DNA of 54,408 nt from a virus, in the IMG/VR virus record IMGVR_UViG_3300021424_000044, positions 1 to 54,408 of that record; one strand, given 5' to 3'. The position numbers and the translations under genes are program-made. This document shows positions 3,598-40,963 of the stretch, piece after piece; position 1 is the stretch's first letter; every line of letters starts with the position of its first letter. The notes under the pieces are model-generated. The model searched no databases, was not told where the DNA came from, and was given only the letters and a program-made list of their open reading frames with translations.

Positions 3598-5037
3598 TCA
3601 AACTGATGCAGACTGCATTGTCAGCACGACTCGTTGTTCGCTTAATTTCAACAAACTTCCTTTTTTGGAAAAGAGAAAGTCATTTCCGCTTGCCGCTCCC
3701 CAGGGTGTCAACGTTACGGTTGCCGAGCCCCCAGAAGAATATGTTCCGCTGGCACTTGCGTTTACAACTTTAAATGTTGTGGCAGTTCGTTCTGTTATTA
3801 CCGTTGACGTGCTGTTGAGTCCAGATGGGGTTATCCCGCTTACAGTTACGGTGTCTCCGACGGCAAAAGTGTTTGCTGCGGTGTATGTTACGGTCTGAGA
3901 CGCACCAGCACCCTCTCGTACGGCGTTTGTTACAGAAGCAGAATCTGTAATTGCAAGACTCAACGAACTCACTGATTTTGCAAATGAATGATTTAAAATA
4001 AATTTAAGAACTGTGTTGTATCTAAGTCTATCTTCATCAAAATCTGAGAATTCTGGAGAAAAGAATCTAACCAAATTTGTGGTCAGCGCCTCTGTTATTT
4101 CGGAAACATCAAACGTCGAATAGTATTGAATCGTTGCGGTTATTTTAAAATCAAGAAGATATGGGTCAACTGTTCCAATATCCATTCCAGCAACAGAACG
4201 CAAAGCAACGGCACTTGTTATGGTGTTTTTTTCAGATTCGGTTAAAAGTCTTTGCGGTCCATAAGCAAACAAAGTTGCATGTCCAGCAACAGCGGCGTCA
4301 GCAACTCCAAAACTTCCATCTTTGTCTGTTAGGTCGTACGTTTTACACCTCGAAATTAAAGTTGGGTTTTCAACCAAAACGTAATTTTGGACTTGTCTTG
4401 CCGTTACGAGCGCGGATGTCATTGTAGATAAATTTGCAACGCCCCTTTCTAGAAAAATATCAAGCGGTTCTGCGTCTTGCCCCTGAACAAAACTCCCAGC
4501 AGCAACCGCAGAAAGTACGTCTGGTTTATAGGAGAGGATTGACAAATTCGTAGATGACGGAATGACTGGAATCGTTCCAATGTTTGTGCAGGTGCAGGTA
4601 ACGGAACCAGTTGGCAGTGGGTCACCTTCTGTATTCGCTGCTATTTCAAGTAGTGTATTTGTTTCAAATGTATATTGAATTTCCAAATCGTCATCTTGAA
4701 TCAAATAAGAAACTATTGTTCCTGCGGGAATGGTAGCGCCATCATTTGTGTTTGCCGTAAAGGTGACACTCATTGTTGCTCTTGTGCCATCGTTGTATGG
4801 CGTTCCAAGCATCTTTATTGCGCCCAAAAACAAAGAATCTGGCAATCTATTGATGGCACCAATGTTTAATGCAGACATGTAGGCAAAAGCCTGAAACATC
4901 GCATCCTCGATTGTCCCCACCCGTAGTTCAAATCCAGGAACAACTGTTTTGGCAACTTCTATTGCGTCAAGATAAACCTGCGTTGGAGAAATATCAAGCG
5001 GTGTTAGGTCGACGTATTGGCGAAAATCTGCTGACAT
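3598..5037 (-). CDS. Baseplate J-like wedge protein
   Basis: Protein of 479 residues. The N-terminus (about 1-80) has the helical, G-T-I-E-D-A-M-F-Q-A-F-containing region typical of gpJ-family proteins. Residues 85-140 contain the Baseplate_J beta unit with T-I-P-A-G-T, and residues 150-290 include G-Q-D-A-E-P-L-D-I-F-L-E-R, a frequent gpJ feature. Residues about 376-442 are an extra Ser/Thr/Gly-rich beta module, T-V-T-Y-T-A then F-A-V-G-D-T-V-T-V-S-G, which also occurs inside the connector protein at 17947-18819. Gene order (gpW-like upstream, gpI-like downstream) supports the call. The protein forms the baseplate wedge that triggers sheath contraction. Confidence 0.85.
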   Translation of the reverse strand: MSADFRQYVDLTPLDISPTQVYLDAIEVAKTVVPGFELRVGTIEDAMFQAFAYMSALNIGAINRLPDSLFLGAIKMLGTPYNDGTRATMSVTFTANTNDGATIPAGTIVSYLIQDDDLEIQYTFETNTLLEIAANTEGDPLPTGSVTCTCTNIGTIPVIPSSTNLSILSYKPDVLSAVAAGSFVQGQDAEPLDIFLERGVANLSTMTSALVTARQVQNYVLVENPTLISRCKTYDLTDKDGSFGVADAAVAGHATLFAYGPQRLLTESEKNTITSAVALRSVAGMDIGTVDPYLLDFKITATIQYYSTFDVSEITEALTTNLVRFFSPEFSDFDEDRLRYNTVLKFILNHSFAKSVSSLSLAITDSASVTNAVREGAGASQTVTYTAANTFAVGDTVTVSGITPSGLNSTSTVITERTATTFKVVNASASGTYSSGGSATVTLTPWGAASGNDFLFSKKGSLLKLSEQRVVLTMQSASV

Positions 5038-5042
5038 GAGTG

Positions 5043-5342
5043 CTACCTATTGTAAACGAATTTGACACTGGTAACGCCAGAATCATCTGTTGCAGTGGAA
5101 CTTATGCCTTCTATGCGTATTTCTGGAATGAACTTATTTGCGACAATCATTAACTGCTCTGGCGAAACTGTTGAGAAACTTGGGTCGGCGACACCGAAAT
5201 CGGGAGTGAATGGAAAAACAAAGGGTTCAGTCAATAAGCAAATACTCAACAATTGCTTAATATAATCGTCTGTACCGTCACGTAGGCGCACCATGCTTCT
5301 GGTGTCGTTTGAAAACGTTATTGGAAATTTTAATGCATCCAT
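5043..5342 (-). CDS. Baseplate wedge protein, gpW/gp25 family
   Basis: Protein of 99 residues, close to the usual 100-130 of gpW/gp25-like proteins. It begins with L-K-F-P-I-T-F and contains D-D-Y-I-K-Q-L-L-S-I-C-L-L-T, the helical pattern by which these proteins are recognised, then E-P-F-V-F-P-F-T-P-D-F-G. The C-terminal half has the expected beta hairpins (P-E-I-R-I-E-G-I). A good ribosome site (AGGAG) precedes the ATG. It lies immediately upstream of the gpJ-like gene, as expected for the wedge heterodimer that links hub and sheath. Confidence 0.75.
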   Translation of the reverse strand: MDALKFPITFSNDTRSMVRLRDGTDDYIKQLLSICLLTEPFVFPFTPDFGVADPSFSTVSPEQLMIVANKFIPEIRIEGISSTATDDSGVTSVKFVYNR

Positions 5343-5350
5343 AAATTCTC

Positions 5351-5761
5351 CTATGTAGTTGGCTGCTTAAACGAGGACAGATTAATGGCGGGTAGTGGCG
5401 GCACCAATTTTGCCCGCACGGTGTTTAATTCTGTTGTCAACTGGTCAATTAGCGCGTTATATATGAGAACATCAGTAAATACATCGATTCGTTTATTTAG
5501 TGGTCCAATCACGTGTATCTGTTGGGTTTGATTATCAATAAAAGTGCAAAGAACAACATCTCCCTTTTTTAATGTGTTTGTTTTAGTGTTATTGACATAA
5601 TCAACCCGATTGAAAGTGCATCCAAGTTGTTCAACAAATATTGTTGGTCTATTATTGGCAAAAGATTTTACGACACCCTTGTAGACTCCTCCGCCAATCA
5701 ATGGGTGAGAGGACCCTTTAACCCTATTTATTTGATTTTTTCTTGTCTTGTCATTAGGCAT
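5351..5761 (-). CDS. Baseplate spike-like protein with OB-fold
   Basis: Protein of 136 residues. Residues 24-90 look like an OB-fold: G-G-V-Y-K-G-V-V-K-S-F, then beta strands and K-K-G-D-V-V-L-C-T-F and I-H-V-I-G-P-L, a pattern seen at the N-terminus of gpV/gp5-type spike proteins. The C-terminal 40 residues are helical and do not show the repetitive beta-helix of a full spike, so the needle is short or lies elsewhere. Context (between a hub gpD-like gene and the gpW-like gene) agrees with the central spike. No lysozyme motif is seen. Confidence 0.5.
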   Translation of the reverse strand: MPNDKTRKNQINRVKGSSHPLIGGGVYKGVVKSFANNRPTIFVEQLGCTFNRVDYVNNTKTNTLKKGDVVLCTFIDNQTQQIHVIGPLNKRIDVFTDVLIYNALIDQLTTELNTVRAKLVPPLPAINLSSFKQPTT

Positions 5762-5763
5762 GT

Positions 5764-6981
5764 CTAACTCTTTCCTTTATAGTTTTTGTTTGTCTGGTCA
5801 CCAAGTAAGTTCGTTATCGTCAACCAGTCAACCGACCCAGGGTAAATTTGCCCAATCGCTATTTGTTTTATCTTTTTTTCCTGTCTTGGTGGAGTGGCAA
5901 ATCTTACATTTACTGGGTCTGCCACCAATTCCTCATAATCGACTTCAGTTATCAGAAAATCATCCGTAAACCATGGTATGTCACCAACATTAACCGTCAT
6001 CCCTGGTCTTAACCTTACGCCATTTGTTCTCTCGACTATACACGAGCCATCTCCCTCCATCGGGTCATTTTCTGCTTTGTGCATCGATGGCAAGCCGAGC
6101 AATTTAAATCTTTGGTCAATCGCTCCGTTTATTGTTTTTGAAGGATAATGCAAGTAGGTGACATATCTTGTCACTTCTTTATTTGCTTTTGCTTTTTTAT
6201 CATAATACGAATGTTTATATGCGTCATGCCCCCATTTGTACATAAGCCATTGCTGAGTACCAAAATAAAGGGTTCCATCTGACTCAAATAAAACAAATGG
6301 ATTTTTGTTTTCGTCTTTTGATTCTCCAGCCAATCTTTCCAAAACAGTCCACAATGAATCGGCAACGTTGTCCCCGCTTGCTTGTGTTATTTGTCTTGAT
6401 GTTGATGTTTGTTGGGCTATGCAGCCCAACCCATATTTTTTTGCTGCATTTCTAACAAAATCACTCCCAGTTCCTTGTACGACTCCAGGATTTTTGTCCC
6501 TTTTCATTTGCTGGATTGCTTTTGTGTAGCACTGCACTCTCACCGTCGGTGATGCGCCTTCAGACTGCTCTACTGTCACGTCTGCTATTTCTAAAAAATA
6601 AGCCATATATTTATTGTTTACTTCCGCTGCAGCATCCGTAGAAAACCCACCATTTGAAACTCCAGAACCAGACTTAATGTCGTATGTCTTGTGACTTCTG
6701 TAAACAAGGGTCTGTCCAACTTGAAAATAATTTTGTAAAGTCAATTCAAGGCCAGGGTCTATTACGGAAAAAGTCACCGCAGTCGCTGCAGAAATTGAAT
6801 AACTAACGCTTATACTCAAAATTTGAGAATTAAGTTTTGTCAAAAATGGAGGCTTAGTAGATGTGCTGTCTCCCACAAAAACCAAAGGGACATCTCTAGC
6901 CGACCCCTGTATGGGGTTGGGGTCTAATTTTAAAGACTTCCCATCTGGAAGGCTTGGATAGTCGACTTCTGTGTTGCTCAT
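5764..6981 (-). CDS. Baseplate hub protein, gpD / gp27-like
   Basis: Protein of 405 residues. Its order in the operon, between the large hub-associated protein and the OB-fold protein, is that of gpD/gp44/gp27 hub proteins. The N-terminal part contains the beta segment S-I-S-V-S-Y-S-I-S-A-A-T-A-V-T-F and F-Q-V-G-Q-T-L-V-Y-R. The C-terminus has G-D-I-P-W-F and F-L-I-T-E-V-D-Y-E, typical of the tube-like beta barrels in late-control D proteins. The start overlaps the preceding stop by 4 bases. These proteins form the trimeric hub joining tail tube and spike. Family placement is by pattern and context. Confidence 0.6.
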   Translation of the reverse strand: MSNTEVDYPSLPDGKSLKLDPNPIQGSARDVPLVFVGDSTSTKPPFLTKLNSQILSISVSYSISAATAVTFSVIDPGLELTLQNYFQVGQTLVYRSHKTYDIKSGSGVSNGGFSTDAAAEVNNKYMAYFLEIADVTVEQSEGASPTVRVQCYTKAIQQMKRDKNPGVVQGTGSDFVRNAAKKYGLGCIAQQTSTSRQITQASGDNVADSLWTVLERLAGESKDENKNPFVLFESDGTLYFGTQQWLMYKWGHDAYKHSYYDKKAKANKEVTRYVTYLHYPSKTINGAIDQRFKLLGLPSMHKAENDPMEGDGSCIVERTNGVRLRPGMTVNVGDIPWFTDDFLITEVDYEELVADPVNVRFATPPRQEKKIKQIAIGQIYPGSVDWLTITNLLGDQTNKNYKGKS

Positions 6982-14942: not shown

Positions 14943-16421
14943 TTAAACGACCGACTTGGTCAGGTTCGACTTGACGATGTCGACTTCAATCTTGTCGCCA
15001 ACGCTCGAAACTCGAACGCCGACTTTTGCCTTGACAAGACCATCGGACAACTGCGAAGTTGGGTTGATTGAAGCATCGCACTTCACTGAGTAACCGAAGT
15101 CGATTCTCTTTCCATTTGTGTCGAACGCTTCAAACAGCGCGCCGTTTGCACGGAGCGGCTCAAGAATCGCGAACAACTTTGACTCAACTGCAGCGAACAC
15201 CGTGTTGCGGCCATCGATGACGCTGAAGATGAGGTCTTCAAGCGAGCGGTTGGCTTCAACCACAACTTGATTGACAACGTCCTGCGCCGTGATATAGCGG
15301 AAGTTCGTCGTGTCAGAAGACAGCGAACGAGCGCCATACACACGAATTGTGTTATTAATGACACGAATTGCATTTACAAATGCGTCATCAAGTGCGTCAC
15401 CATTCGTCTTGTCAATGTCAGTTGCAACACCATTGACAAACGAAGCCACAGAAATCAAACCAGCGCCTGGTTTGTGGGCACCAACCTGAGTGTGTGCGAC
15501 CGCTCGTTTTGCGGCAGCGTAACCCACAGGTGGAATCAATCGATTGACACCAGCGATGCTTGTCGGAACAAAAACCCACGGATAGAAATAAGCGACGTGC
15601 TCGGTGTTGTCACCAGCCGCAGACAAGGTTTGTCCAGTAGACGTTGCCTCTGCAATCGTGTCGTCAAACGCGCCATACAGAAAGGCGACCCTGTTATATG
15701 TATTGGCATGATTTGCCAAAGCCGTCTGAACCGTTGCGTTTGACGACTCTGCGCATATTACGGCACCAGTTCCAAATGATTCAAGGAACAAACTGAGTCC
15801 AGCGACATAGTCGGCTGCGGCTACGTCTTCTTCATTGTCATCCCCAGCACTAAGCGCGACTGGTGATGCGTCGTTGTGTGGTACGCCAGCCTCACCAAGG
15901 TCCGTGGCGCTTACAAGTTTTGACACCGTTGGGTTGGAATTAATGCGACCGACTGCTTGCGCAACCGTCGTGACATTGCCCGTGCTGAACACAAGCGTGC
16001 CACCATCAAAAATCTTAATGATGAATGTACCAGTAGCAGTTCCTGGATTTATACACTGAACAGTGATGCCAGTACTCCACGCACCAGGACCGTTGGCTGT
16101 AATCGTCATGACGTTTGTTCCGCCAGCGCCAGCCGTTGTGTCGAGGGTTCTTGAACCAGTTGAATGACCAGAACCAGCAACACGCGCAATCCACGCTCTT
16201 GTCCCACCCTCTTCAAAGAATGTCTGCACTGAAGGATGCGTGTACGAGTACGACGCATAACCACCATAGATTGCTTCAAATTCTTCGAGACTTGTGACCA
16301 ACTTGGATGAAGTCACTGGACCACGCGCCGTCTTGCCAACAAAGAACGCCTGTGATGTCTCAACTGCCGTTGTGGCGTTTGGTCCAACTCTTACTGCTGT
16401 TTGTATGCTTACGCCTGGCAT
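14943..16421 (-). CDS. Tail sheath protein
   Basis: Protein of 492 residues. The N-terminus M-P-G-V-S-I-Q-T-A-V-R-V-G-P then F-F-V-G-K-T-A-R-G-P and a F-F-E-E-G-G-T-R-A-W-I-A-R-V segment near residue 70 are hallmarks of contractile tail sheath proteins. A variable beta domain occupies about residues 90-200 and the C-terminal domain (about 380-490) carries conserved helices and a terminal extended strand (V-D-I-V-K-S-N-L-T). The gene has a purine-rich ribosome site (GAGGAAGG). The sheath contracts on baseplate triggering to drive the tube through the host envelope. This gene alone establishes a myovirus morphology. Confidence 0.95.
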   Translation of the reverse strand: MPGVSIQTAVRVGPNATTAVETSQAFFVGKTARGPVTSSKLVTSLEEFEAIYGGYASYSYTHPSVQTFFEEGGTRAWIARVAGSGHSTGSRTLDTTAGAGGTNVMTITANGPGAWSTGITVQCINPGTATGTFIIKIFDGGTLVFSTGNVTTVAQAVGRINSNPTVSKLVSATDLGEAGVPHNDASPVALSAGDDNEEDVAAADYVAGLSLFLESFGTGAVICAESSNATVQTALANHANTYNRVAFLYGAFDDTIAEATSTGQTLSAAGDNTEHVAYFYPWVFVPTSIAGVNRLIPPVGYAAAKRAVAHTQVGAHKPGAGLISVASFVNGVATDIDKTNGDALDDAFVNAIRVINNTIRVYGARSLSSDTTNFRYITAQDVVNQVVVEANRSLEDLIFSVIDGRNTVFAAVESKLFAILEPLRANGALFEAFDTNGKRIDFGYSVKCDASINPTSQLSDGLVKAKVGVRVSSVGDKIEVDIVKSNLTKSVV

Positions 16422-18852: not shown

Positions 18853-19140
18853 TTAGCCTCTGCGGCGAAGACGACCGAGCAGGCCTCGTGCAAGTTCAGA
18901 TGCTCTTTCGGTTAGACGAGAAAGGCGGCGTCTTGTCTTGCCAGCGCGACCCTCATCCTCGTCACCTTTCTGGACAATAACGTCAAAGCAAACAACCATT
19001 CCTCTTATCTTGCCGTAATCAAGTGGCTTCTTTCCGCCACCCAAACCAAACTTTTCGTTGCGACCATCTAGAAACATTGGGATGAACTCCTTGGTTTTGA
19101 AGCGCAACACTTGACGAAGCGCTCCACCAAATTTTACCAT
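18853..19140 (-). CDS. Small protein with Arg-rich C-terminus, unknown function
   Basis: Protein of 95 residues starting at the ATG at 19138-19140 (M-V-K-F-G-G-A-L-R-Q). A longer version would overlap the previous gene by some 80 bases, so the shorter start is preferred, although no clear ribosome site is visible. The last 30 residues are strongly basic and helical (R-R-R-L-S-R-L-T-E-R-A-S-E-L-A-R-G), suggesting nucleic acid or membrane-surface binding. No family is recognised. Confidence 0.5.
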   Translation of the reverse strand: MVKFGGALRQVLRFKTKEFIPMFLDGRNEKFGLGGGKKPLDYGKIRGMVVCFDVIVQKGDEDEGRAGKTRRRLSRLTERASELARGLLGRLRRRG

Positions 19141-19159
19141 TATTGGCGTAGCGACAGCG

Positions 19160-19714
19160 TTATCTATCTGAATTTGGGGGTCGCTCGGTCTCGATTGCCT
19201 CCACGGTGCCAGCAGGAGCCTCAATCGGAACCCATGCACGAGAATACTTGTGCTCTGAAATGTTTAATTTTTTGATAAGTGTTCCATCTAACAAAAGATG
19301 CAATTCATCGTATTTGATTGTCAATAATTTATCCAAATCCTCTTCTGAATACTTATTGCTATAAATCAAATCGCGAACCACTTTCGCAACCTTGTGTGCC
19401 ACAAGCGTGCCACGTCCGCGGTTTAATTGCAAATGCATGAGCGACGCTTCCAGGGTGTCGCATTCGCGAATGACACATGGAATTACATCGCCAATACGTT
19501 TGGCCATCTTTTCGTTTTCCTTCACCAACATCCATCGGTGGTAGCCATCAATAATCGCATTATCTGCCTTACGAACCAAAATTGGGAATATAAATCCATA
19601 TTGTTGAAGTGATGCAGAAAGCGTTAGTAGGTCTGGGCGAAGAACGTGATTGGAGTGCCAGTCGCCTTTCTTTAGTTCAGACACTGGTAGATATTCGGTG
19701 GCCACTAATCTCAT
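19160..19714 (-). CDS. ParB/sulfiredoxin-like nuclease-domain protein (second of two)
   Basis: Protein of 184 residues. Residues 8-80 form a ParB N-terminal-like domain: Y-L-P-V-S-E-L-K, L-L-T-L-S-A-S-L-Q-Q-Y-G-F-I-F-P-I-L-V and I-I-D-G-Y-H-R-W. The D-G-Y-H-R box corresponds to the ParB catalytic or nucleotide-binding motif. The C-terminal region is helical and lacks a recognisable ParB helix-turn-helix. The ATG overlaps the PAPS-reductase-like gene by four bases, so the two are coupled. Pairing of ParB-like and PAPS-reductase-like proteins is known for IbrA/IbrB. A role in DNA modification or host regulation is an inference. Confidence 0.75.
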   Translation of the reverse strand: MRLVATEYLPVSELKKGDWHSNHVLRPDLLTLSASLQQYGFIFPILVRKADNAIIDGYHRWMLVKENEKMAKRIGDVIPCVIRECDTLEASLMHLQLNRGRGTLVAHKVAKVVRDLIYSNKYSEEDLDKLLTIKYDELHLLLDGTLIKKLNISEHKYSRAWVPIEAPAGTVEAIETERPPNSDR

Positions 19715-20853
19715 TCTTCCTCCATGTTCATTTCTGATGATTCAATTTCCCTAACTGAATGAACCCTGGTTTTGGGGCCTATCGGCGTCGCCGCAACCGA
19801 GGGTGCGATTGAGTGCATGAAGAGAGAATTTATCAACGCATAAATTGTGTATGACTTTGGGTCTTTGACCTGTTTGCGTCTATATTCTGCTACAAAAGCC
19901 ATTGCCCTCTGTTTTTTGGTTTCGCCAATCATGTATTCGTCAATGAATTCCTTAACGCCATCCCAGCCTCGCTTTGCATGCTGGGATATGAGCGCCTCTA
20001 TGTCAAAGACTGGCCAATATCTGTGTTGGGCATCTATGTATGGGAAGCACTCAACGAGTCGGTCATAAAACTCTGGCTCCGTGGCAACGACATCTCCAAT
20101 TCTACGAATCGCAGTTGCATGAAGTGGGATGCCAACTCTAGTGTTACTGCCAGTAACAGCAGCCCTGTCGTAGTACTCACAATACCGTTCGTTGTGCTCT
20201 TCGATAATAAATTTAAAAACATCAGCGGTCTGCCAATCATAAATAACCTTGGCGAACTTTAAGGGCATTTTGCGCTTCATCTTGTACGGCGTAACAATGT
20301 AGTTTTCGTGAAGTTTTTGTACCAGTGAGCGATATCTAACCATTGATTCATTTGCTCTAACCCCAGTTATGAATGCAACATTGCCTTTCTTACCCTGCAT
20401 GGTGTAGTAGTCGGGATGCTCTGGCATATATGTGTGCCCGCTAACTCCAAAATTCTTTGCCGATATTGAGTATGACGGCATTTCTCTAATTAGCCTGCCT
20501 TCGGCACGACGCTTTTCGCTCCACAAAATCACAGACTGTCGTCGCCCAAGTACCCATACCTCTGACCCGTGGGAAAGGCAATACCATTCCATATCTACCC
20601 ATGGCTTATCCCTGATGTATTCAACGTACTCAATTACCGCAGGACTAACCATTTCCTCGTCACGAAAAATAACTTTGACTGGACCAAGTCCACGTTCCTC
20701 GTGTACTTCCTTGGCCAACAAAAGAACGGCAGTGGAATCTTTACCGCCAGAAAACTGGACACAAACCGTATCGAAAGTGTCGTAAACATGGCGAATACGT
20801 TGACGCGCAGCCTCGACGCAATTGATGTCCAGAAATAGGCGTTGCCGTGTCAT
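19711..20853 (-). CDS. PAPS reductase-like protein (IbrA/DUF3440-like PP-loop ATPase)
   Basis: Protein of 380 residues. The N-terminus contains the PP-loop V-Q-F-S-G-G-K-D-S-T-A-V-L (S35-G-G-K-D-S40) of the adenylating N-type ATP pyrophosphatase/PAPS reductase superfamily. It lacks the C-terminal E-C-G-L-H motif of assimilatory PAPS reductases, and its length and layout fit IbrA-like proteins. It contains R-A-N-E-S-M-V-R-Y-R, the arginine-rich motif of this group. The gene is coupled by ATGA overlaps to ParB-like genes on both sides. Relatives in this superfamily include DndC/SspD-type proteins that activate sulfur chemistry on DNA, but no cysteine desulfurase or other Dnd proteins are seen here, so the substrate is unknown. 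Confidence 0.8.
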   Translation of the reverse strand: MTRQRLFLDINCVEAARQRIRHVYDTFDTVCVQFSGGKDSTAVLLLAKEVHEERGLGPVKVIFRDEEMVSPAVIEYVEYIRDKPWVDMEWYCLSHGSEVWVLGRRQSVILWSEKRRAEGRLIREMPSYSISAKNFGVSGHTYMPEHPDYYTMQGKKGNVAFITGVRANESMVRYRSLVQKLHENYIVTPYKMKRKMPLKFAKVIYDWQTADVFKFIIEEHNERYCEYYDRAAVTGSNTRVGIPLHATAIRRIGDVVATEPEFYDRLVECFPYIDAQHRYWPVFDIEALISQHAKRGWDGVKEFIDEYMIGETKKQRAMAFVAEYRRKQVKDPKSYTIYALINSLFMHSIAPSVAATPIGPKTRVHSVREIESSEMNMEEE

Positions 20854-21644
20854 GCGTCTGTATGTGCGTCAATGAAATTGATTAGGCGCTCTGCGGTTGT
20901 TGTTCCGTCAATCGCTGGGTCATTGCGCAACCAACGAATAAAGTCGTACCAGCGACGCTGTTGTTCTGGTGAATCAAAAACGACCTGAACTGAAACTATT
21001 GCCTGGGGCGCCGAACCAGGAACAGCGACGGTGGAGCCCTGAAGGACTACGCTCTTTTGGTCAATATCCTTTGGTGCAATCAGTTTCGCTTCTCCGTCTT
21101 CGTCTTTTTGCGCAAGCGATGAAATTTGCTTTTCTACTTCCTCTGACACCTGTGTCGGTTGGGCAACAATCACTGGCGGAACATAGACGCTAGAAATTAT
21201 TTCGTCGTTTGCCTTCATTGTGGCTCGCTCGTCCATGGCGGCCATTTCGAATTCGTCCCACCCAAGACCACTCCATAGGTCACTAAAATCCTGTGAAACT
21301 TCTGTCAACATTTTCTGCAACATATCGTCATCGGTGTAGCCAAGTTCCATCGTTCGGTTGTCGGCTAGGGCGTATGCAATTGCTCGCTTGTCGTCGCCGT
21401 CAATAAATACAACTGCAATTTCATTCCATCCAAGTTGCTTGGCAGCCATAACCTGATGATTTCCCGCAACAATCGTCGCAGTGCCGTCGTCGTTTTTCTT
21501 GGCGACGATTGGCTTAATCTGTCCAAACTCTTGATATGAAGCCGCAATCGCGTTTACGTCGCCCTTGCGGGGGTTGTTGTTGAGGTGTACAAGTTGGTCA
21601 ATCGGGAACACCAATGATTTCAGCGAGGGATGGATGTTGCTCAT
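20850..21644 (-). CDS. ParB-like nuclease-domain protein (first of two)
   Basis: Protein of 264 residues. Residues about 15-90 are a ParB-like N-terminal domain: L-N-N-N-P-R-K-G-D, then F-G-Q-I-K-P-I-V, G-N-H-Q-V-M-A-A-K-Q-L-G and A-Y-A-L-A-D-N-R. The G-N-H-x-V box replaces G-E-R-R of chromosomal ParB and is common in phage and IbrB-like proteins. The C-terminal half is a poorly conserved acidic linker followed by Q-Q-R-R-W-Y-D-F-I-R-W-L-R. It is coupled by four-base overlaps both upstream (coiled-coil gene) and downstream (PAPS-reductase-like gene), making it part of a three-gene unit. It may act as a nuclease or CTP-binding switch; neither is shown. Confidence 0.75.
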   Translation of the reverse strand: MSNIHPSLKSLVFPIDQLVHLNNNPRKGDVNAIAASYQEFGQIKPIVAKKNDDGTATIVAGNHQVMAAKQLGWNEIAVVFIDGDDKRAIAYALADNRTMELGYTDDDMLQKMLTEVSQDFSDLWSGLGWDEFEMAAMDERATMKANDEIISSVYVPPVIVAQPTQVSEEVEKQISSLAQKDEDGEAKLIAPKDIDQKSVVLQGSTVAVPGSAPQAIVSVQVVFDSPEQQRRWYDFIRWLRNDPAIDGTTTAERLINFIDAHTDA

Positions 21645-21979
21645 ACCTGTACCCGTACGTTTGCGTTCAAGGTTCGCAGTGAATCCATTGATGTTCGCAG
21701 GGAAAGAAGTTTTTCTCGTTTGGATTTAACCAGTGCCTCTGCAATTTTGTAGTCGTAATCAAAGTCGGCCATTTTGTAGTCGGCCCACGCTTCGCGTTCC
21801 TTGATGGAGCCCTTGGCTGACAGATACTCTTTGGCCCAATTTGCTTTATAAAGAGATTCTTTTTTGGCCGCGTCTTCAGCCAACTTTTCAAAGGCCTCGG
21901 TTTCTTCTTCAAGTAGGTCCATCATGCGCAACAACTCTTGCTCGATTTCTACTTGACTTATCGGAGCAGTTCGGACCAT
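21641..21979 (-). CDS. Coiled-coil protein, unknown function
   Basis: Protein of 112 residues that is almost entirely charged helix (E-I-E-Q-E-L-L-R-M-M-D-L-L-E-E-E-T-E then a second helix with K-S-K-R-E-K-L-L-S-L-R). It overlaps the end of the RuvC-like gene by 22 bases and the next gene by four. It has no motif that identifies a function. Similar small helical proteins accompany recombination genes in many phages, and it could be an accessory of the nuclease cluster. Confidence 0.6.
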   Translation of the reverse strand: MVRTAPISQVEIEQELLRMMDLLEEETEAFEKLAEDAAKKESLYKANWAKEYLSAKGSIKEREAWADYKMADFDYDYKIAEALVKSKREKLLSLRTSMDSLRTLNANVRVQV

Positions 21980-33949: not shown

Positions 33950-36900
33950 ATGCAGGAACGTAAAGTATTAATTGCGCGCGTCATAAAGAGCGCTCGGGTT
34001 TTGCCTACATCGAAAGATACGCCGCAAGAGCGCATATCGAAATTTGTAGAGGCACAGAAGCAGGTTGTCGCGTACCCGTTTTCGCCAGAACTTTCGGTGA
34101 AGGCACTCGGGCAAGCACTCAAAAACAACAAGGACCCTTCTGCCGACAACAAGGAAAAACGCAAAAAGGCAGAATCCAATTTCACTCGTATCGGTGTTGC
34201 TGTTTTTGACCCAGATGCGACACCCAAAAAGGGCCAATACTTTGAGATAAGACCTCGCAAAGTAAATCAAGACGGACAACTTGGCGATGTGCCGAATGTT
34301 GGTTGGCTTGACCCACGAAAGACGGTCAAACCAGAAGATTTGGTTAACCAGGGCAAGAAGTTTCTAGCGTCGAAAAAGGGACCATCTGTAAGAAAGGTTC
34401 CAGCCAAGAAAAACCCGCGCACTGGACAAATGGAAGTTAAGGCGCTGGGCAGAACAATCGGCAGGGCCGCTGGGAACATCGGGCAAGCAGCCGCAAGGGC
34501 GGCTGGGGTTCTCGTTGATGCTGACGGCAAGTTCAGATGCCCGCCAGGAGTTCCAGCGGCCAATCAATTTACGGATGAAGTTGGAAGCAACTGTTTTGAT
34601 TTTTCCCCATTGGTAGCCCGAGCGTTGGTGAAAATCGCTGAAAAGTTTGGACATCAAATGATGGAAAAACTTAGCAAAGTTAATAACGCAACCCCCTTTG
34701 AGCGGAATGACGATTATCAACTTGTCCTGCGTAGTAGTGGCGGAAGACTCCGTGGCACAGTCCTTGGTCCAGAGAAAGAAAGACTTCGCGGAACACTTCT
34801 TGGTCCTGATGGAAAACCAATACCGCCGACACCACCACCGCCGCCAGCAACACCAATTGAGCCTTTTGATTTGATTGAGCGCGAACTTGAGATAGCAGAA
34901 AGAGACCTTGCAAGAATTGCTGGTTCTGGAGAAATAATTGACCCAGACACCTATGAAGAAAAATTTGAAGAAGCGTTTCGCGCCGCATACCCAGAATTGA
35001 CTGACGAAGAAATCAAGTCGCTTGCCAAAATCGCATCAGAGCGTGAGCGCATGAGAGATAAATTACGCGCAGAGCAGAGAAGCGCACTGGACCTAATAAG
35101 GTCGCTTGGAATAGACGTTGACGAAAGTGACCCAGTGTCAGTTCAAAGAGGAATAGCGCTGGCGTTGTTGAAAATGAAAGAGATGGGCTGGGATATCGAC
35201 CTTGACTCATATTTTGGTGAAGGATTTTCCGAAAATCCAGAGCGAGCATTACTCGCATACAGGAACACCATCGCAAATATGGCTTTGGATGGGACGCTTG
35301 ATGCGGTAAGGCAGGGGATAATTCACGGGATGAGCCCAGCCGATTTAGAGGTACTGCAAAGAAAATACGGGTCAAAATTTGAAGAAATGTTGGTGCAGGG
35401 GATAGTTGATGGCTCCAACCCTTCTGAAATTTTCCCTGATGACGAAAAAGCACAACAGTTGCTTGCCATGGGTCAAAGGTCTCTCGCCAAGGCTCAACAA
35501 TTTGAGACTGGCACCCTTTTGCAATTGATAAATGCAAGGCAAGAGAACCCCGAACTTACGCAAGATATAAAAAGTATTGTTCATGTTGCTTACGACCCCA
35601 GTGACCCGTTTTTTGGGGGGATGAGTATTGACGAAAAGGGCAATTTGCAGTTTCAGATGAATCTCGGCGGAATGTTACTGCTACACCCAGCCGCGTCGTT
35701 GTCGGATTCGGATTCATTCCTGTATGAACCAACTGGGACCGCTGGAACAGAAATAGAAAAATTGAAAAGAATAGGCGAAGTTGTAAGCGCGGAAAATAGG
35801 CACCGCCTGCTTGATTCATACATGGGGGGCCTAACGACATTTGCAGAACAAATATCTAAAATCCGCAACGGCGAAGGCTACATGACGCAGAGTCTCAACG
35901 ATTCATTTGGTGGTATGGCGCTTGGCCAATTCGTTGCTTTTCATGAACTGACGCATGGGCGCCAACTTTCCATGGCAAGGGAGATAATCAAGTCAAGAAA
36001 CCCTGGAATGTCAAACAGTGAGGCTATGGCACTGTTGGGTCAAATGATTTTTCAGGGCAGAAAATTCACGGATTCAAGAGGTGTTGACTTCGATTACGGA
36101 ACAATGATTACCGACCCGCAAGTGATGCTCACCGCATGTGCGAACATGAGGGAAATAGTTCATCACTTAATCGACAATAAAGTCGGAGGTACATACGGTC
36201 CCTCGCATTACTATTCCACGTTTTACTTAAACGAGGTCATGAGCAAAGCCAATAATTATTCTGACGTGAGCGACCTAAGAGACAGTCTCGTTATGCGGAA
36301 GCGAGAATTGGAGGCCGCAGGAAAAAACGAAGAAGACGCAGAATACAAGGGTCTGATTATGGCTATAGGGCGTATTGACGGTGTCCTAGCAAGTGCCACC
36401 GATGACGAAGACGCCCTATTAAAGATGCGCAGACAAGTAAACGAAATGGCTCAAGTTACATATTTGGAAATGCAGGCAGACCTTTCGGCTGCAGTGAAAT
36501 TCGGGCTCATAAAAGAAACTCCAGAAATAAAGGCATTCCTGGCTCCGCTATCGCTTGGCCAAGACCTCCCAGAAATAAAAAAGAATATTGTGCCGCCGCC
36601 GCCGCCAGCACCGCCTGGCCCACCACCAACGAGGCGAGATAAGTTGAGGGAATTGGCAGGGATAGGTAAACGAGCAAGAAAAATTTCGATGATGGACTTG
36701 CGAGACATGGTTGAGGGAATCGCTGACATAGATGAAGCCACTGATAAAACTGGTGGTCTTTCTGCTCACGACAGGACTCTCATGTCGGCAGGTATGGCGT
36801 CAGCCGCAAAATTTGATAGTAGGGGCTCTGCATCCAGATGGGGCAAACAAGTCAGAGACGCTGTGTTGCGCGACATGACAGAAAAACATCGTGAGGTGTT

Positions 36901-39900
36901 GGAATCTGAATGGCGTGAACTTTTCGATGTTAAAAACCCAATAGCAGAAGACGGAACAAACCAGTCCATATTGGACCATAGGCTGATTATGGGTGGTGTT
37001 GACGACTCCTGGCTCTCAAATGAAATAGAAAATGGCTTCATTCCATTGGTAGAAGTTGTTGGTGAATCCAAACTTCCGAATTCTGTGGCTGCTGAAATAG
37101 TTATACCTGGTGGCGCCATTAGCGAATTTGGCGAGGAAATGAAGGGGAGAAGAATAGAAATCAGAACACATTTCACTGGGGTCATCAAATCCGACGACAA
37201 CCTTGGTTCCTCAGATTCCATTACAAATCCAATTGACAATCAAAGATTGATTGTCGCCGTACCAGAGGGGTATTCGGGCCTTCCCGACTACACGCCAGGA
37301 ACAGACAAAAGCGAAATTGGCTCGATAATTCTTCCCCCTGGGGAAATAGAAATTGTTGGTGTTAGGGATGACGGTGTCGCAATTGGCCGCGTAACGTCGC
37401 AGCGAAGCGCCGACGATATTATCGACGCAAAACGCCAAGAACTTAAAGCATTTGACGACAAAAAAACTGACATTGGCGAAAAAATAACAGTCAGAAAAGC
37501 CATAAATAGGCTTGAAAGACAACAAGAGACCCGCAGACTTTCTGCGCTTCGTTCCGCTGGTAATACCGCTCGCGCATTACCAGATGAAGATAGAACAAAA
37601 CTTCCATCAGCAAAGTCGAGCAAAACACGCGACGTACTTGAGCGCCTCAATGCCGTTGGAATTAAATTTGGCATCAGCAGCAAAAAAGACAGGGAGAGAA
37701 AACGCAAGGAGCGATTGTCCAGGGTTGGCGGAGATAATGCGCGTGTCGGGATGAGCGTTAGAACAGACACGTATGAATTCGAAAGTCCAGAAGAGTCGCA
37801 GGTGAGGGTTTCGAAAAGCATCGATAGGGCTGTAGAACTAATTAAAGAGGGCAAACTTCCTGGACTGGCGCCAGAAGTTGCAGAAATCATGAAGGACAAA
37901 TCCCCAGAAGAAATTAGAGCCATTCTTGTTGCTTCCGCACGTTCGTTTGTCGATGGACTTGATAAGAGACCGCGATTTAGGGTGCGTGGAACAAGGGTCC
38001 GAGACGTAAAGGACGCCAGAGAAATACCGTTACTTGGATTCTTGAAAACTGGTGTTTACAAAACCACCTATGATGCTGACGCAACTGGTGTCGCGGCGGC
38101 ATCCGATGTGGGAAGGAGGGCGGAGTATGAGATTCTGCTTGGTTTACCAGAGGGGGCCGATGAATCCCTGAGGCCAGCACATGGCTTCATGACGCATAGA
38201 GACCAAATTGAGTTTGAGGACGAGTGGGCAAAAGCACAGATTGACGCTGCTGAAAAACGGTCGCCAAACGCCGTTTCGTTTAGAGACCCAAGCGTTATCC
38301 CGCCAGCATCTGGCTCCAATAACAAACTCAAGGATGCTGACGGCAAACTGAGGGCTGTTGACTCATTGCCATATCAGTATGGTGACAGCGAAATAGTGTT
38401 GAGAACCGACGCGGCCAATCGTTCTGTCGGAACAATGGGTGACTCGCTAAATGGCTTTAGGACCCCATTCCAACTTGATGGCTCATCCACCGATGATGAA
38501 TTATTGGAGTCTTTTATTCTCAATAGGGGTTCTGCGGCTGACAAGGGCGATATTACCGCTTCAGAACAAAGACGAATTGCAAACCTGTTGAATGCCGCAG
38601 TCGGCAAAAATCACGCACACACCACCGACTGGACGGAAGATGGTGGGGTTCCACAAAGGGATTATGTAGAAGCAGTTGTTGCTGGTTCTTTTGATATGAG
38701 CGACGTGGAAGAAATAAAAATTTCCAAGGGCTTCCAAGATGCAGAAATAATGCCGTTTGCAAAAGTTGACGCTCAAAATGTCGGGGGTGATGAGGTGGTT
38801 GAATTATTGCAAGACGTACTCCCACAAAAAGATATAGATGAGGTTAAAAAACTTATTTCATCTCCACAAACAGACCCAGACAAAAAGCGCCTTGCTGAGG
38901 ACATTAAGCAATTAATCGCGGCGAGACTCCAGTTGGTAAGAGAAAGAAGTGGCAGAAGGCAAGTGCGCGCACGAGTTGCACAACATTCATCGGATGGCAA
39001 TGTTCCCAAGGTTACTTTCTTGAATCCTGATGGAATAAACATTGATGACCCCAGGACCTTCAAGAGAACAATGGACGCCGTCGGTATGGGCGAAGAGCAC
39101 GAAATAGACGACATCGTCAAATATGCAACCGCAAAAGCCATCCGTGAAAGACTTTCTGGCTCTGGCATTTCTGTTGACGACGATGCATCATTCGCTGCCC
39201 TGAAGCCAAAACCAGTTATATCTGTTGCCAATAATAAACCAGCACTTCGCTCCAGTGGCGCCGCGACACCAAAAACAAGAACGCAAATACTTTCCGAACT
39301 GACAAGTTCGGGGAATAAGCCAGACTATGCCCCAATAGGTTCTCGTTCACTACAGATGATGGACGAGGCAAAAAAGAGGCGAGAAGAACTATCCCAAATA
39401 CTTGATTCGGCAAGAATGATAACCCCCAATTTTGAAGAAGATGAATTGAGCGAAGTTCTCAACATGGCCGACAAGACTTTTGCTTGGGCAGATGAGGAAC
39501 TTATTGCATCCTTAAGACAATTACGAAATCGCCCTGGTCTCTCAGATGCTGGTAGAAAGAAAATTGACCGCGCATTACAAGAACTACAACAAAGAAAAAA
39601 GGAATTTGTTGCAGCGGGTGAACGAGGATTTGTTCCAGGGATTCGCAGAAGCGGCGCCGACAAAAGCCGACGCCTCGCAAGGCGTTCTGAATCTGCCGCT
39701 CGCAGAATGGAATCTGGTGACCCAGCACAAATAGCCCGAGGTTTGAGAGACATTCGCAGCGCAAGAATGAGCGCCGAGGGGAGGGAGAACACCACCCGAA
39801 TCGCCCAAAACCAAGTTATCCGAGGGAGTGGTTCAAGGTCTGCTTTCAGGACAAGGGGTGTTGGCGCCTCACTTCGTTCTTCTGGTGCCACAAGAAGTGT

Positions 39901-40963
39901 GGATGACAAACTTTCCGAAGGGCCAAGAAACCTTCAGTATGGAACAGACTCACAAAATTTGCCGCGCGTGGCGACGGCGGATGAATTGGAAAAGCGATTT
40001 GGGAATTCCACAAAGGCTCACAGAAAATATTTTCGTCAATACGGCGTAAAACTCGTGGGCAACATACCCGATGACCCAGTTGAAAGAGAAACTTACTACG
40101 CGTCTTTGCAAGCGTTGGATGATTTATTTAAAAACGTAGACCATAAACAACTGTTGAAAGGACTCAAATTTAAGGTAAGAGTTAATTCTTTTGTAACAAA
40201 GGGTGGCGAGGGACCATTTGGAGAATTTTCAAGGGTAAAAAGAATATTTGCAGATTATGGAAAAGATAAAATCCAAATGAGCATCTCAACTGACAGAATT
40301 ACCAAAAACGCAAAAGAACTTCACGACGATTCGCTCAGGTATCGTTTTGTTGACCCGATGACAAACCAAATGTTGTCTTCCTTTGTGAACAGACTTTACA
40401 TAAGTCCAGAAAGACTTAAAGGCTCAAATGGCTCCCAAGAAGAAATAGCAAGAAGGCTTGCGTATGCATGTGCAGTTCACGAATTTGGACACTTCCTTGA
40501 TTTTGCAGCGGTCAGAAAGGAAGATAGGACAAGAATGAGGTCCCTTCTTGGTGAAGGAGTATTTGGTGAAAGGGACTTGGCAACCGAAGAACTCGGCGCC
40601 TATAGAACAGCGCGTTTAGTTGAGCAATTGAATCAGATGCCGTCTGTGTCTTCGTACGGAGTATCAAGCCCACAGGAAAAACTCGCAGAGGCGTTCACCG
40701 CCTGGTTCTTGTTTTCCAAACGACCAGATATAGCGATTAATGGCGACCTTTCGCTAAGCGATAAAGAAAGGTCGCAACCAATATCAGGAACAATTGGCGG
40801 ATTTGCCAAACCAGTTGTTGAACTCTTGCTGGAAGAATTGGGACCAAGAGTCAAATCCGCTAAACAAAACAAAAACGATGATGATGATGATGATGATTTG
40901 CCACCACTTGTCGCCATGTACGCCCTGTTTCCGTTTATGATTGAAGATGGTGGAAAAGCGTGA
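33950..40963 (+). CDS. Giant polyvalent protein with two zincin-like metallopeptidase sites
   Basis: Protein of 2337 residues. N-terminal beta/alpha region (1-150), then an Arg/Ala-rich amphipathic stretch L-G-R-T-I-G-R-A-A-G, then a paired-Cys module (residues 195-216: R-C-P-P-G and F-T-D with C215). LRSSG-type motifs are at 260, 1200, 1766 and 1975. H-E-L-T-H (665-669), followed about 175 residues later by Y-L-E-M-Q-A-D-L, and H-E-F-G-H (2177-2181), followed by K-L-A-E-A-F-T-A-W-F, are two HExxH zinc sites with plausible third ligands. Several Pro-rich linkers occur (near 295 and 880). The C-terminus is Asp-rich. It may process head or host proteins. The gene ends overlapping the next start. 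Confidence 0.8.
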   Translation: MQERKVLIARVIKSARVLPTSKDTPQERISKFVEAQKQVVAYPFSPELSVKALGQALKNNKDPSADNKEKRKKAESNFTRIGVAVFDPDATPKKGQYFEIRPRKVNQDGQLGDVPNVGWLDPRKTVKPEDLVNQGKKFLASKKGPSVRKVPAKKNPRTGQMEVKALGRTIGRAAGNIGQAAARAAGVLVDADGKFRCPPGVPAANQFTDEVGSNCFDFSPLVARALVKIAEKFGHQMMEKLSKVNNATPFERNDDYQLVLRSSGGRLRGTVLGPEKERLRGTLLGPDGKPIPPTPPPPPATPIEPFDLIERELEIAERDLARIAGSGEIIDPDTYEEKFEEAFRAAYPELTDEEIKSLAKIASERERMRDKLRAEQRSALDLIRSLGIDVDESDPVSVQRGIALALLKMKEMGWDIDLDSYFGEGFSENPERALLAYRNTIANMALDGTLDAVRQGIIHGMSPADLEVLQRKYGSKFEEMLVQGIVDGSNPSEIFPDDEKAQQLLAMGQRSLAKAQQFETGTLLQLINARQENPELTQDIKSIVHVAYDPSDPFFGGMSIDEKGNLQFQMNLGGMLLLHPAASLSDSDSFLYEPTGTAGTEIEKLKRIGEVVSAENRHRLLDSYMGGLTTFAEQISKIRNGEGYMTQSLNDSFGGMALGQFVAFHELTHGRQLSMAREIIKSRNPGMSNSEAMALLGQMIFQGRKFTDSRGVDFDYGTMITDPQVMLTACANMREIVHHLIDNKVGGTYGPSHYYSTFYLNEVMSKANNYSDVSDLRDSLVMRKRELEAAGKNEEDAEYKGLIMAIGRIDGVLASATDDEDALLKMRRQVNEMAQVTYLEMQADLSAAVKFGLIKETPEIKAFLAPLSLGQDLPEIKKNIVPPPPPAPPGPPPTRRDKLRELAGIGKRARKISMMDLRDMVEGIADIDEATDKTGGLSAHDRTLMSAGMASAAKFDSRGSASRWGKQVRDAVLRDMTEKHREVLESEWRELFDVKNPIAEDGTNQSILDHRLIMGGVDDSWLSNEIENGFIPLVEVVGESKLPNSVAAEIVIPGGAISEFGEEMKGRRIEIRTHFTGVIKSDDNLGSSDSITNPIDNQRLIVAVPEGYSGLPDYTPGTDKSEIGSIILPPGEIEIVGVRDDGVAIGRVTSQRSADDIIDAKRQELKAFDDKKTDIGEKITVRKAINRLERQQETRRLSALRSAGNTARALPDEDRTKLPSAKSSKTRDVLERLNAVGIKFGISSKKDRERKRKERLSRVGGDNARVGMSVRTDTYEFESPEESQVRVSKSIDRAVELIKEGKLPGLAPEVAEIMKDKSPEEIRAILVASARSFVDGLDKRPRFRVRGTRVRDVKDAREIPLLGFLKTGVYKTTYDADATGVAAASDVGRRAEYEILLGLPEGADESLRPAHGFMTHRDQIEFEDEWAKAQIDAAEKRSPNAVSFRDPSVIPPASGSNNKLKDADGKLRAVDSLPYQYGDSEIVLRTDAANRSVGTMGDSLNGFRTPFQLDGSSTDDELLESFILNRGSAADKGDITASEQRRIANLLNAAVGKNHAHTTDWTEDGGVPQRDYVEAVVAGSFDMSDVEEIKISKGFQDAEIMPFAKVDAQNVGGDEVVELLQDVLPQKDIDEVKKLISSPQTDPDKKRLAEDIKQLIAARLQLVRERSGRRQVRARVAQHSSDGNVPKVTFLNPDGINIDDPRTFKRTMDAVGMGEEHEIDDIVKYATAKAIRERLSGSGISVDDDASFAALKPKPVISVANNKPALRSSGAATPKTRTQILSELTSSGNKPDYAPIGSRSLQMMDEAKKRREELSQILDSARMITPNFEEDELSEVLNMADKTFAWADEELIASLRQLRNRPGLSDAGRKKIDRALQELQQRKKEFVAAGERGFVPGIRRSGADKSRRLARRSESAARRMESGDPAQIARGLRDIRSARMSAEGRENTTRIAQNQVIRGSGSRSAFRTRGVGASLRSSGATRSVDDKLSEGPRNLQYGTDSQNLPRVATADELEKRFGNSTKAHRKYFRQYGVKLVGNIPDDPVERETYYASLQALDDLFKNVDHKQLLKGLKFKVRVNSFVTKGGEGPFGEFSRVKRIFADYGKDKIQMSISTDRITKNAKELHDDSLRYRFVDPMTNQMLSSFVNRLYISPERLKGSNGSQEEIARRLAYACAVHEFGHFLDFAAVRKEDRTRMRSLLGEGVFGERDLATEELGAYRTARLVEQLNQMPSVSSYGVSSPQEKLAEAFTAWFLFSKRPDIAINGDLSLSDKERSQPISGTIGGFAKPVVELLLEELGPRVKSAKQNKNDDDDDDDLPPLVAMYALFPFMIEDGGKA
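34532..34597 (+). other. Paired-Cys module, copy 1 (in 2337-residue protein)
   Basis: Encodes residues 195-216 with F-R-C-P-P-G, then F-T-D and a final C; the equivalent element in the 686-residue protein reads S-R-C-P-E-G, G-G-R-F-T-D and C. It sits where the Asp/Gly calcium-loop-like module sits in the other large proteins, after an Arg/Ala-rich amphipathic stretch. Confidence 0.6.

What the first reader, a model, noticed from the sequence alone, without database searches (positions are those of the whole stretch)
19160..21644. ParB-like / PAPS-reductase-like / ParB-like coupled trio
Three genes overlap each other by four bases: a 264-residue ParB-like protein, a 380-residue PP-loop protein with S-G-G-K-D-S, and a 184-residue ParB-like protein with D-G-Y-H-R-W. 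PAPS-reductase-like plus ParB-like gene pairs are known (IbrA/IbrB), and PP-loop proteins of the same superfamily act in DNA sulfur modification (DndC, SspD), in which DndB-like proteins carry a related D-G-Q-H-R motif. Two ParB-like partners with different boxes (G-N-H-Q-V and D-G-Y-H-R) on either side of one PP-loop protein is an unusual arrangement. A phage DNA-modification or anti-restriction unit is possible, but no cysteine desulfurase or other Dnd gene is present.
Basis: partly seen in the sequence, partly recalled or inferred. Interest (0 to 1): 0.7.

Follow-up and report, generated by a model that had tools for sequence, protein, structure and literature searches.

The report
Phage ParB–PP-loop–ParB modification cassette candidate
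Three tightly coupled phage genes, an ATP-using enzyme of the PAPS-reductase type between two ParB-like proteins, recur in many aquatic and soil phages and, in one well-studied phage group, sit where relatives carry proven or predicted DNA-modifying gene sets, so they probably make a still unidentified chemical mark, most likely on DNA.

Summary
The trio is not a one-off: of 90 loci found through neighbouring genes, 81 carry all three; it also occurs in Mycobacterium, Arthrobacter, Bacillus and Rhizobium phages. PPL and the last gene are relatives of IbrA/IbrB, but the ParB1-bearing clade is one side of a branch (97*); 69 classical IbrA loci have no ParB1. In cluster-B mycobacteriophages the slot between the ParB gene and terminase holds PPL+IbrB in B3, but DpdA/QueCDE/FolE in the Rosebush type (dPreQ0 proven in Rosebush DNA) or TET/JBP with amino-acid:DNA transferase in others. 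That points to a DNA-modification cassette. DndC-type sulfur chemistry is not supported: one near-invariant cysteine, no DndB match. Against a general anti-restriction shield: this 54-kb genome has no GATC, AGCT or CCGG site at all, and relatives that lost ParB1+PPL avoid GATC just as much. Chemistry and target are unknown; mycobacteriophage Athena is a ready test case.

The parts
20850..21644 (-). ParB1: 264-aa ParB-fold protein (GNHQ box), flexible linker, conserved C-terminal segment
   Evidence: ParB_N 4.7e-8, phrog_723 1.3e-39; model matches Noc/ParB-CTP structures; 48-58% identity between the Athena ParB1 and gp1 of DpdA- and TET-type cassettes
19711..20853 (-). PPL: 380-aa PP-loop / PAPS-reductase-fold protein, presumed catalytic subunit
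   Evidence: phrog_2302 8.5e-78, PF01507 2.3e-11; AlphaFold model pLDDT 86, FAD synthase / APS and PAPS reductase / CysD at Z 13-16 within residues 6-280
19160..19714 (-). IbrB-like ParB: 184 aa, DGYHR box, invariant DGxxR
   Evidence: phrog_2159 2.3e-28; homologous to annotated phage IbrB; follows PPL in 78/79 window-lineage loci with room
20734..20751 (-). SGGKDS PP-loop (residues 35-40 of PPL)
   Evidence: invariant in 54 aligned homologues
20335..20364 (-). GxRxxExxxR motif of PPL (residues 164-173)
   Evidence: G164, R166, E169, R173 invariant
20179..20181 (-). Cys225 of PPL, the only cysteine conserved across the trio clade
   Evidence: 60 of 61 sequences; N in Streptococcus phage IbrA
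21450..21464 (-). GNHQV box of ParB1 (residues 61-65)
20871..21005 (-). C-terminal segment of ParB1 (VVFDxxxQQxxWYxFIxWLR...TxAERLxxFI)
   Evidence: F223, Q228, T249 invariant in 59 sequences; predicted as two confident helices after a long flexible linker
19532..19549 (-). DGYHRW box of the IbrB-like protein (residues 56-61)
21641..21979 (-). 112-aa small protein (phrog_1389) overlapping the start of ParB1; conserved in the window lineage, neighbour rather than component

Best explanation
The trio is a phage nucleic-acid modification cassette, most likely acting on DNA. Proposed mechanism: the PP-loop protein binds ATP and activates a site on the DNA (a base carbonyl or the phosphate) by adenylylation, then a small nucleophile is attached. 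The IbrB-like ParB is its working partner. ParB1 is an NTP-dependent DNA-loading clamp, the same part that heads the DpdA, TET/JBP and ParB-methyltransferase cassettes of related phages. Some relatives add an acetyltransferase or a SAM methyltransferase gene directly after the trio, which fits tailoring of a group already installed. Shown here: gene coupling, conservation, fold, clade-specific presence of ParB1, shared slot with proven or predicted DNA-modification cassettes, joint loss of ParB1 and PPL. Inferred: target DNA, adenylylation, clamp role of ParB1. Unknown: the nucleophile, the modified position and the benefit. A general shield against type II restriction is unlikely.
For: (1) Slot: in Bclasvirinae, ParB gp1 is followed, before terminase, by PPL+IbrB in B3 Athena, DpdA/QueC/QueD-like/QueE/FolE in Laurie of genus Rosebushvirus (Rosebush DNA carries dPreQ0 at ~28% of G, PMC6884629), a TET_JBP-like protein + ADDT (PF18724, 2e-21) + FAD enzyme in Reprobate, ParB fused to a methyltransferase plus a PLP enzyme in Vincenzo, no cassette in B1 Serendipity. 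Gordonia MossRose repeats ParB+TET+ADDT (ADDT 5e-26); Arthrobacter Altadena has ParB, TET, glycosyltransferase, deacetylase. (2) The ParBs of these cassettes are homologous (48-58% to Athena gp1); PMC6392294 proposes ORF1 of the DpdA type as DpdB, and PMC11955845 lists a ParB-first thymidine-hypermodification set. (3) ParB1 upstream in 60/60, 21/25 (two more by hand) and 19/19 trio-clade loci versus 0/69 classical IbrA loci; one change on the tree, 97* support. (4) Eight loci lost ParB1 and PPL together. (5) GNAT or methyltransferase downstream in 9/30 and 15/20 trio loci outside the window lineage, 0/80 IbrA loci. (6) PPL fold.
Against: No modified base has been measured in any trio phage. 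PP-loop enzymes often act on tRNA or small molecules. The window has 0 GATC, 0 AGCT and 0 CCGG (158, 125 and 96 expected) and Bacillus phage 031MP002 has essentially no CCGG, CGCG or GGCC, so trio phages still dodge restriction by losing sites. Loci without PPL avoid GATC equally (4/5 versus 55/79). IbrB persists alone in 8 loci. The window lineage has no tailoring gene next to the trio (0/80). The slot argument comes from Bclasvirinae; in the window lineage the trio lies between RuvC and head genes. The 'DpdA' of Laurie had no Pfam match here and is taken from its annotation and the papers.
Confidence: 0.5

Rival explanations
1. The trio modifies something other than phage DNA (tRNA, a host protein or a small metabolite) or works as a gene-expression co-activator like the reported role of IbrA/IbrB; the ParB proteins regulate or present that target.
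For: PPL and the third gene are homologous to phage proteins annotated as IbrA and IbrB, named co-activators of prophage gene expression (PMC4490671). PPL's best structural matches include FAD synthase and CysD, which adenylylate small molecules. 13 of 45 IbrB-like proteins match the serine kinase SerK weakly.
Against: The ParB1 member is absent from classical IbrA loci (0/69) and is shared instead with DNA-modification cassettes.
Confidence: 0.25
2. The trio is a reduced phosphorothioation or other DNA-sulfur system of DndC/SspD type that borrows the host cysteine desulfurase.
For: PPL shows local similarity to DndC and BrxP models around the PP-loop; host IscS can replace DndA (PMC10853773); one cysteine, C225, is near-invariant, and LarE, a PP-loop sulfur transferase, is among the fold relatives.
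Against: DndC has three cluster cysteines and an extra dyad (PMC10853773); PPL has one conserved cysteine, replaced by N in an IbrA. No DndB/DGQHR model matches any of 45 IbrB-like proteins. No cysteine desulfurase family in 20 records. DndC match is 24 bits against a cut-off of 290.
Confidence: 0.08
3. The ParB proteins and PPL act in genome packaging or segregation, for example marking or clamping phage DNA for the terminase.
For: The trio lies next to terminase genes in Arthrobacter, Mycobacterium and Bacillus-like phages; the window trio lies between terminase and head/tail genes on one strand; ParB1 resembles ParB/Noc clamps.
Against: DpdA and TET cassettes share the position without any packaging role known; PPL is an enzyme with intact ATP motifs; eight relatives live without ParB1 and PPL.
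Confidence: 0.1
4. PPL is an auxiliary metabolic PAPS reductase feeding host sulfur assimilation, as such genes are often annotated.
For: PF01507 match and PAPS-reductase fold.
Against: No ECGxH catalytic motif and no CC pair of APS reductases; nearly always coupled to ParB partners; 11-19% identity to true reductases.
Confidence: 0.02

Closest known systems
IbrA/IbrB pairs of prophages and enterobacterial genomes
   Same: Adjacent PP-loop protein and DGxHR ParB in the same order, homologous in sequence
   Different: Classical loci lack ParB1 (0/69); PPL falls on the other side of a 97* branch, is about 50 residues shorter, and has a cysteine (C225) missing in the sampled IbrA
ParB-headed DNA-modification cassettes of Bclasvirinae and other actinophages (DpdA/Que type of Rosebush and CRB2; TET/JBP + ADDT type)
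   Same: Homologous ParB first gene, coupled modifying enzymes, same slot before terminase
   Different: The catalytic part is a PP-loop protein plus a second ParB instead of a transglycosylase or dioxygenase
DndC/DndB (phosphorothioation) and BrxP
   Same: PP-loop fold and a ParB-superfamily partner
   Different: Cysteine set missing, no desulfurase found, DndB models do not match
DpdB, the ParB-like ATPase of bacterial Dpd systems
   Same: Same superfamily; this role is proposed for the first ParB of the DpdA-type phage cassette (PMC6392294)
   Different: Not compared directly with a DpdB sequence here

Membership tests
IbrA/IbrB pair | PP-loop protein homologous to annotated IbrA | tested here: met
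   27% over 275 aa, E 1e-20 to Streptococcus phage CHPC1148 IbrA
IbrA/IbrB pair | Adjacent downstream ParB homologous to annotated IbrB | tested here: met
   E 9e-12 to the same phage's IbrB; downstream in 78/79 loci
IbrA/IbrB pair | Two-gene unit without a further ParB | tested here: not met
   ParB1 upstream in 60/60 window-lineage loci, in 0/69 IbrA loci
IbrA/IbrB pair | Activates prophage genes | not testable with these tools
   No expression data
Dnd/Ssp phosphorothioation (DndC) | Three Fe-S cysteines plus a cysteine dyad in the PP-loop protein | tested here: not met
   Five cysteines in all, one near-invariant in the clade
Dnd/Ssp phosphorothioation (DndC) | Score above the curated DndC cut-off (TIGR03183) | tested here: not met
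   24.3 bits against 290.4
Dnd/Ssp phosphorothioation (DndC) | Cysteine desulfurase encoded with it | tested here: inconclusive
   PF00266 absent in window and 19 related records, but records may be fragments and the host enzyme may serve
Dnd/Ssp phosphorothioation (DndC) | Phosphorothioate in DNA | not testable with these tools
   Needs LC-MS/MS
DndB / DGQHR proteins | Match to a DndB or DGQHR model | tested here: not met
   None in 45 IbrB-like proteins, PADLOC and NCBIfam, E up to 0.1
ParB-headed phage DNA-modification cassette | First gene a ParB homologous to those of known cassettes | tested here: met
   Window ParB1 33-37% over 119-149 aa to gp1 of Laurie, Reprobate, Stinger, MossRose; Athena ParB1 48-58%
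ParB-headed phage DNA-modification cassette | Occupies the same genomic slot, between ParB and terminase | tested here: met
   Met in Bclasvirinae B3 and Arthrobacter Kovu; not in the window lineage, where the trio lies between RuvC and head genes
ParB-headed phage DNA-modification cassette | Modified bases in virion DNA | not testable with these tools
   Needs LC-MS/MS; site avoidance argues against a broad shield
Assimilatory PAPS/APS reductase | ECGxH catalytic motif or paired cysteines | tested here: not met
   Neither motif present
ParABS chromosome partition ParB | Score above TIGR00180 cut-off | tested here: not met
   35.5 bits for ParB1 and 21 for the IbrB-like protein against 58.45
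ParABS chromosome partition ParB | ParA partner next to it | not tested
   No ParA family search was run on the window; none of the immediate neighbours scanned matched one
ParB-CTPase fold | ParB_N fold | tested here: met
   ParB1: Pfam above cut-off, Foldseek Noc/ParB E 2e-8. IbrB-like: Pfam 23.3 bits, below the cut-off of 26.3, fold not predicted

The most novel reading that the evidence does not exclude
The trio is a new, widespread class of phage DNA modification: a PP-loop ATPase, a chemistry known so far on tRNA and in the Dnd backbone, installs an undescribed base or backbone group on DNA with the help of two different ParB proteins, optionally acetylated or methylated by a following enzyme, and serves something other than broad restriction resistance.
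Probability: 0.3. Interest if true: 0.85.

Novelty: new variant of a known kind. Interest (0 to 1): 0.6.

Why it matters
If it modifies DNA, hundreds of environmental phages and a culturable mycobacteriophage group carry an unrecognised DNA mark made by PP-loop chemistry, and the 'co-activator' label of the IbrA/IbrB family would gain a mechanism. The comparison also suggests that one ParB-like protein is a shared loading part of several unrelated phage DNA-modification cassettes, which makes the role of ParB folds outside segregation directly testable.

Tried and rejected
Sulfur assimilation enzyme: no reductase cysteine motifs. DndB relationship of the third gene: motif resemblance only, no model match. 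Search for other modification enzymes in 20 records: no TGT, no thymidylate synthase, no cysteine desulfurase; the amidoligase search rang in no control and says nothing. Sequence search of the PDB with the single PPL protein gave no PP-loop match; the profile search and the fold did. DndC is not among the listed structural matches, which does not exclude it. The published GATC/GGATCC excess of B3 phages (PMC4841201) was considered as a footprint of the trio; at GATC it is mostly explained by trinucleotide content (Markov ratio 1.16), though GGATCC is frequent in Athena (106, versus 1 in B1), so it is not used as evidence. GATC avoidance as an effect of the trio: rejected because loci without PPL avoid it too. 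One locus with ParB1 but no PPL in reach (L336) showed a long insertion, not another cassette. No paper found in the held library describes a tested function for this trio. The Iyer 2013 paper on DNA-base modification systems is not held. Accessions tried for Rosebush and PG1 were not in the collection; Laurie and Serendipity were used instead.
Full report
Observation. The motifs are present. Family scans give ParB_N and phrog_723 for ParB1, PF01507 and phrog_2302 for PPL, phrog_2159 for the third. Between the window and four near relatives, silent sites are near saturation while amino-acid changes are few (pN 0.06-0.20), so all three are under strong purifying selection.

Distribution. The window is an IMG/VR virus record with portal, terminase, head and tail genes (a tail sheath at 14943-16421 is my reading of the sequence). 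A scan with PPL returned at least 599 viral stretches. In the 80 closest loci the order is TerL, ERF, PD-(D/E)XK, HNH, RuvC, 112-aa protein, ParB1, PPL, IbrB-like, head gene; where the contig allows, ParB1 precedes PPL in 60/60 and the IbrB-like gene follows in 78/79. Those loci were chosen by PPL similarity, so I repeated the count with loci fetched through RuvC and terminase: 81 of 90 informative loci have the full trio, eight have lost ParB1 and PPL together but keep an IbrB-like gene with its DGxxR box, one has ParB1 only within reach. The trio also occurs in Arthrobacter Kovu, M. abscessus prophage prophi79-1, mycobacteriophages Daisy and Athena, Bacillus 031MP002 and Rhizobium P11VFA. 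In bacterial genomes the trio type is rare; the better hits are mostly enterobacterial and flavobacterial IbrA types.

Relation to IbrA/IbrB. PPL and the third protein are homologous to Streptococcus phage proteins annotated IbrA and IbrB (E 1e-20 and 9e-12). In 80 loci of the classical type, PPL-like and IbrB-like genes are neighbours in 72 of 74 with room, but none of 69 has ParB1 upstream. On a tree of 99 PPL/IbrA proteins the ParB1-associated ones are one side of a single branch with support 97*, one change against a mean of 31.6 in shuffles (quick search). So this is a distinct three-gene subtype.

The slot argument. In Bclasvirinae the genome's left end runs from a ParB gene (gp1) to the terminase. 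In Athena (Pipefishvirus, B3) the genes between are two small ORFs, PPL and the IbrB-like ParB. In Laurie (Rosebushvirus) they are an annotated DpdA-like transglycosylase, QueC, a QueD-like protein, QueE and FolE; Rosebush DNA carries dPreQ0 at about 28% of G (PMC6884629). In Reprobate they are a TET/JBP-like dioxygenase (E 6e-5, below Pfam's cut-off), an amino-acid:DNA transferase (PF18724, 2e-21) and an FAD enzyme. In Stinger a TET/JBP relative stands alone. In Vincenzo the ParB is fused to a methyltransferase-like domain (N6_N4_Mtase 3e-5, just below cut-off), followed by a PLP enzyme. In Serendipity (B1) no such cassette lies there. Gordonia MossRose repeats ParB, TET, ADDT, and Arthrobacter Altadena has ParB, TET, glycosyltransferase, deacetylase. 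The ParBs of these sets are homologous: Athena gp1 is 48-58% identical to gp1 of Laurie, Reprobate, Stinger, Vincenzo and MossRose. Two papers read the same first gene as part of a modification set (PMC6392294; PMC11955845). The simplest reading is that PPL+IbrB is another interchangeable DNA-modification cassette headed by the same ParB. This is inference from position and homology.

Mechanism. The PPL model (pLDDT 86) matches FAD synthase, APS/PAPS reductase and CysD at Z 13-16 within residues 6-280, with a C-terminal helical extension not covered. SGGKDS is invariant, as are the fixed residues of GxRxxExxxR, so ATP use and adenylyl transfer are expected from the superfamily; not shown. Of five cysteines only C225 is near-invariant in the trio clade, and it is N in the sampled IbrA. 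That does not fit the DndC set of three cluster cysteines plus a dyad (PMC10853773). No cysteine desulfurase, TGT or thymidylate synthase family was found in the window and 19 related records, although these may be fragments. ParB1 matches ParB/Noc CTP clamps and carries, after a flexible linker, a short C-terminal segment conserved in trio ParB1s across the sampled phages. In 9 of 30 and 15 of 20 trio loci outside the window lineage a GNAT or SAM-methyltransferase gene follows within 2.5 kb, in none of 80 IbrA loci and none of 80 window-lineage loci. In three near-identical loci PPL carries an intein-like insert of about 320 residues directly before the cysteine at position 92; inteins usually settle in conserved, important sites (general knowledge).

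What speaks against a broad anti-restriction role. The 54.4-kb window has 0 GATC, 0 AGCT and 0 CCGG where a second-order Markov model expects 158, 125 and 96; no other 4-mer with 15 or more expected is depleted below 0.35. In 54 window-lineage loci of at least 8 kb, 48 lack at least one 4-nt palindrome, GATC in 45. Bacillus phage 031MP002, with the trio, has essentially no CCGG, CGCG or GGCC, which from general knowledge match B. subtilis restriction specificities. Loci without PPL avoid GATC as much as those with it (4/5 versus 55/79; small numbers). These phages therefore seem to escape restriction by losing sites; the trio neither causes nor relieves it. If the mark is on DNA it is sparse, sequence-specific, or serves another purpose.

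Verdict. It is a new three-gene variant of the IbrA/IbrB kind with a clear, cheap test in mycobacteriophage Athena.

Noticed in passing
window 1-54408: The whole record contains no GATC, AGCT or CCGG (158, 125, 96 expected by a second-order Markov model) while no other 4-mer is strongly depleted; GATC is absent from most of the lineage. Looks like complete restriction-site elimination.
   Followed up: partly
L124-L126, PPL ORF 4759-6861: PPL interrupted by an in-frame intein-like insert of about 320 residues directly before Cys92; ParB1 not found in the 4.7 kb upstream.
   Followed up: partly
L314, L319, L330, L339, L344, L347, L350, L352: ParB1 and PPL lost together, IbrB-like gene kept with intact DGxxR box, suggesting a function of its own or recent loss.
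   Followed up: partly
window 18853-19239 (-): Small arginine-rich ORF between the IbrB-like gene and the head gene; relatives have similar short Arg-rich ORFs in the same place.
   Followed up: no
window 51389-54097 (+): 902-aa protein combining DUF3721, a sigma-70 region 4-like HTH and a zeta-toxin-like kinase domain.
   Followed up: no
window 33950-40963 and 44127-50993 (+): Two very large ORFs (2337 and 2288 aa); the first has no convincing Pfam match, the second was not scanned.
   Followed up: no
NC_041965 (Athena, L085/L086): GGATCC occurs 106 times in Athena but once in the B1 Serendipity and B5 Reprobate stretches read; a published GATC/GGATCC excess of B3 phages is unexplained (PMC4841201).
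   Followed up: partly
L091:807-1670, L094:776-1744: Genes annotated 'queuine tRNA-ribosyltransferase' or 'oxidoreductase' in many cluster-B phages look like TET/JBP-like dioxygenases, a probable misannotation.
   Followed up: partly
L140:5303-5998 and L107:2962-3543: A 2OG-oxygenase-like protein (HalD family match 1.6e-6 in L140) encoded between ParB1 and PPL.
   Followed up: no
L286 (Kovu) and L288 (031MP002): Both trio phages also encode annotated amidoligase and gamma-glutamyl cyclotransferase genes elsewhere.
   Followed up: no
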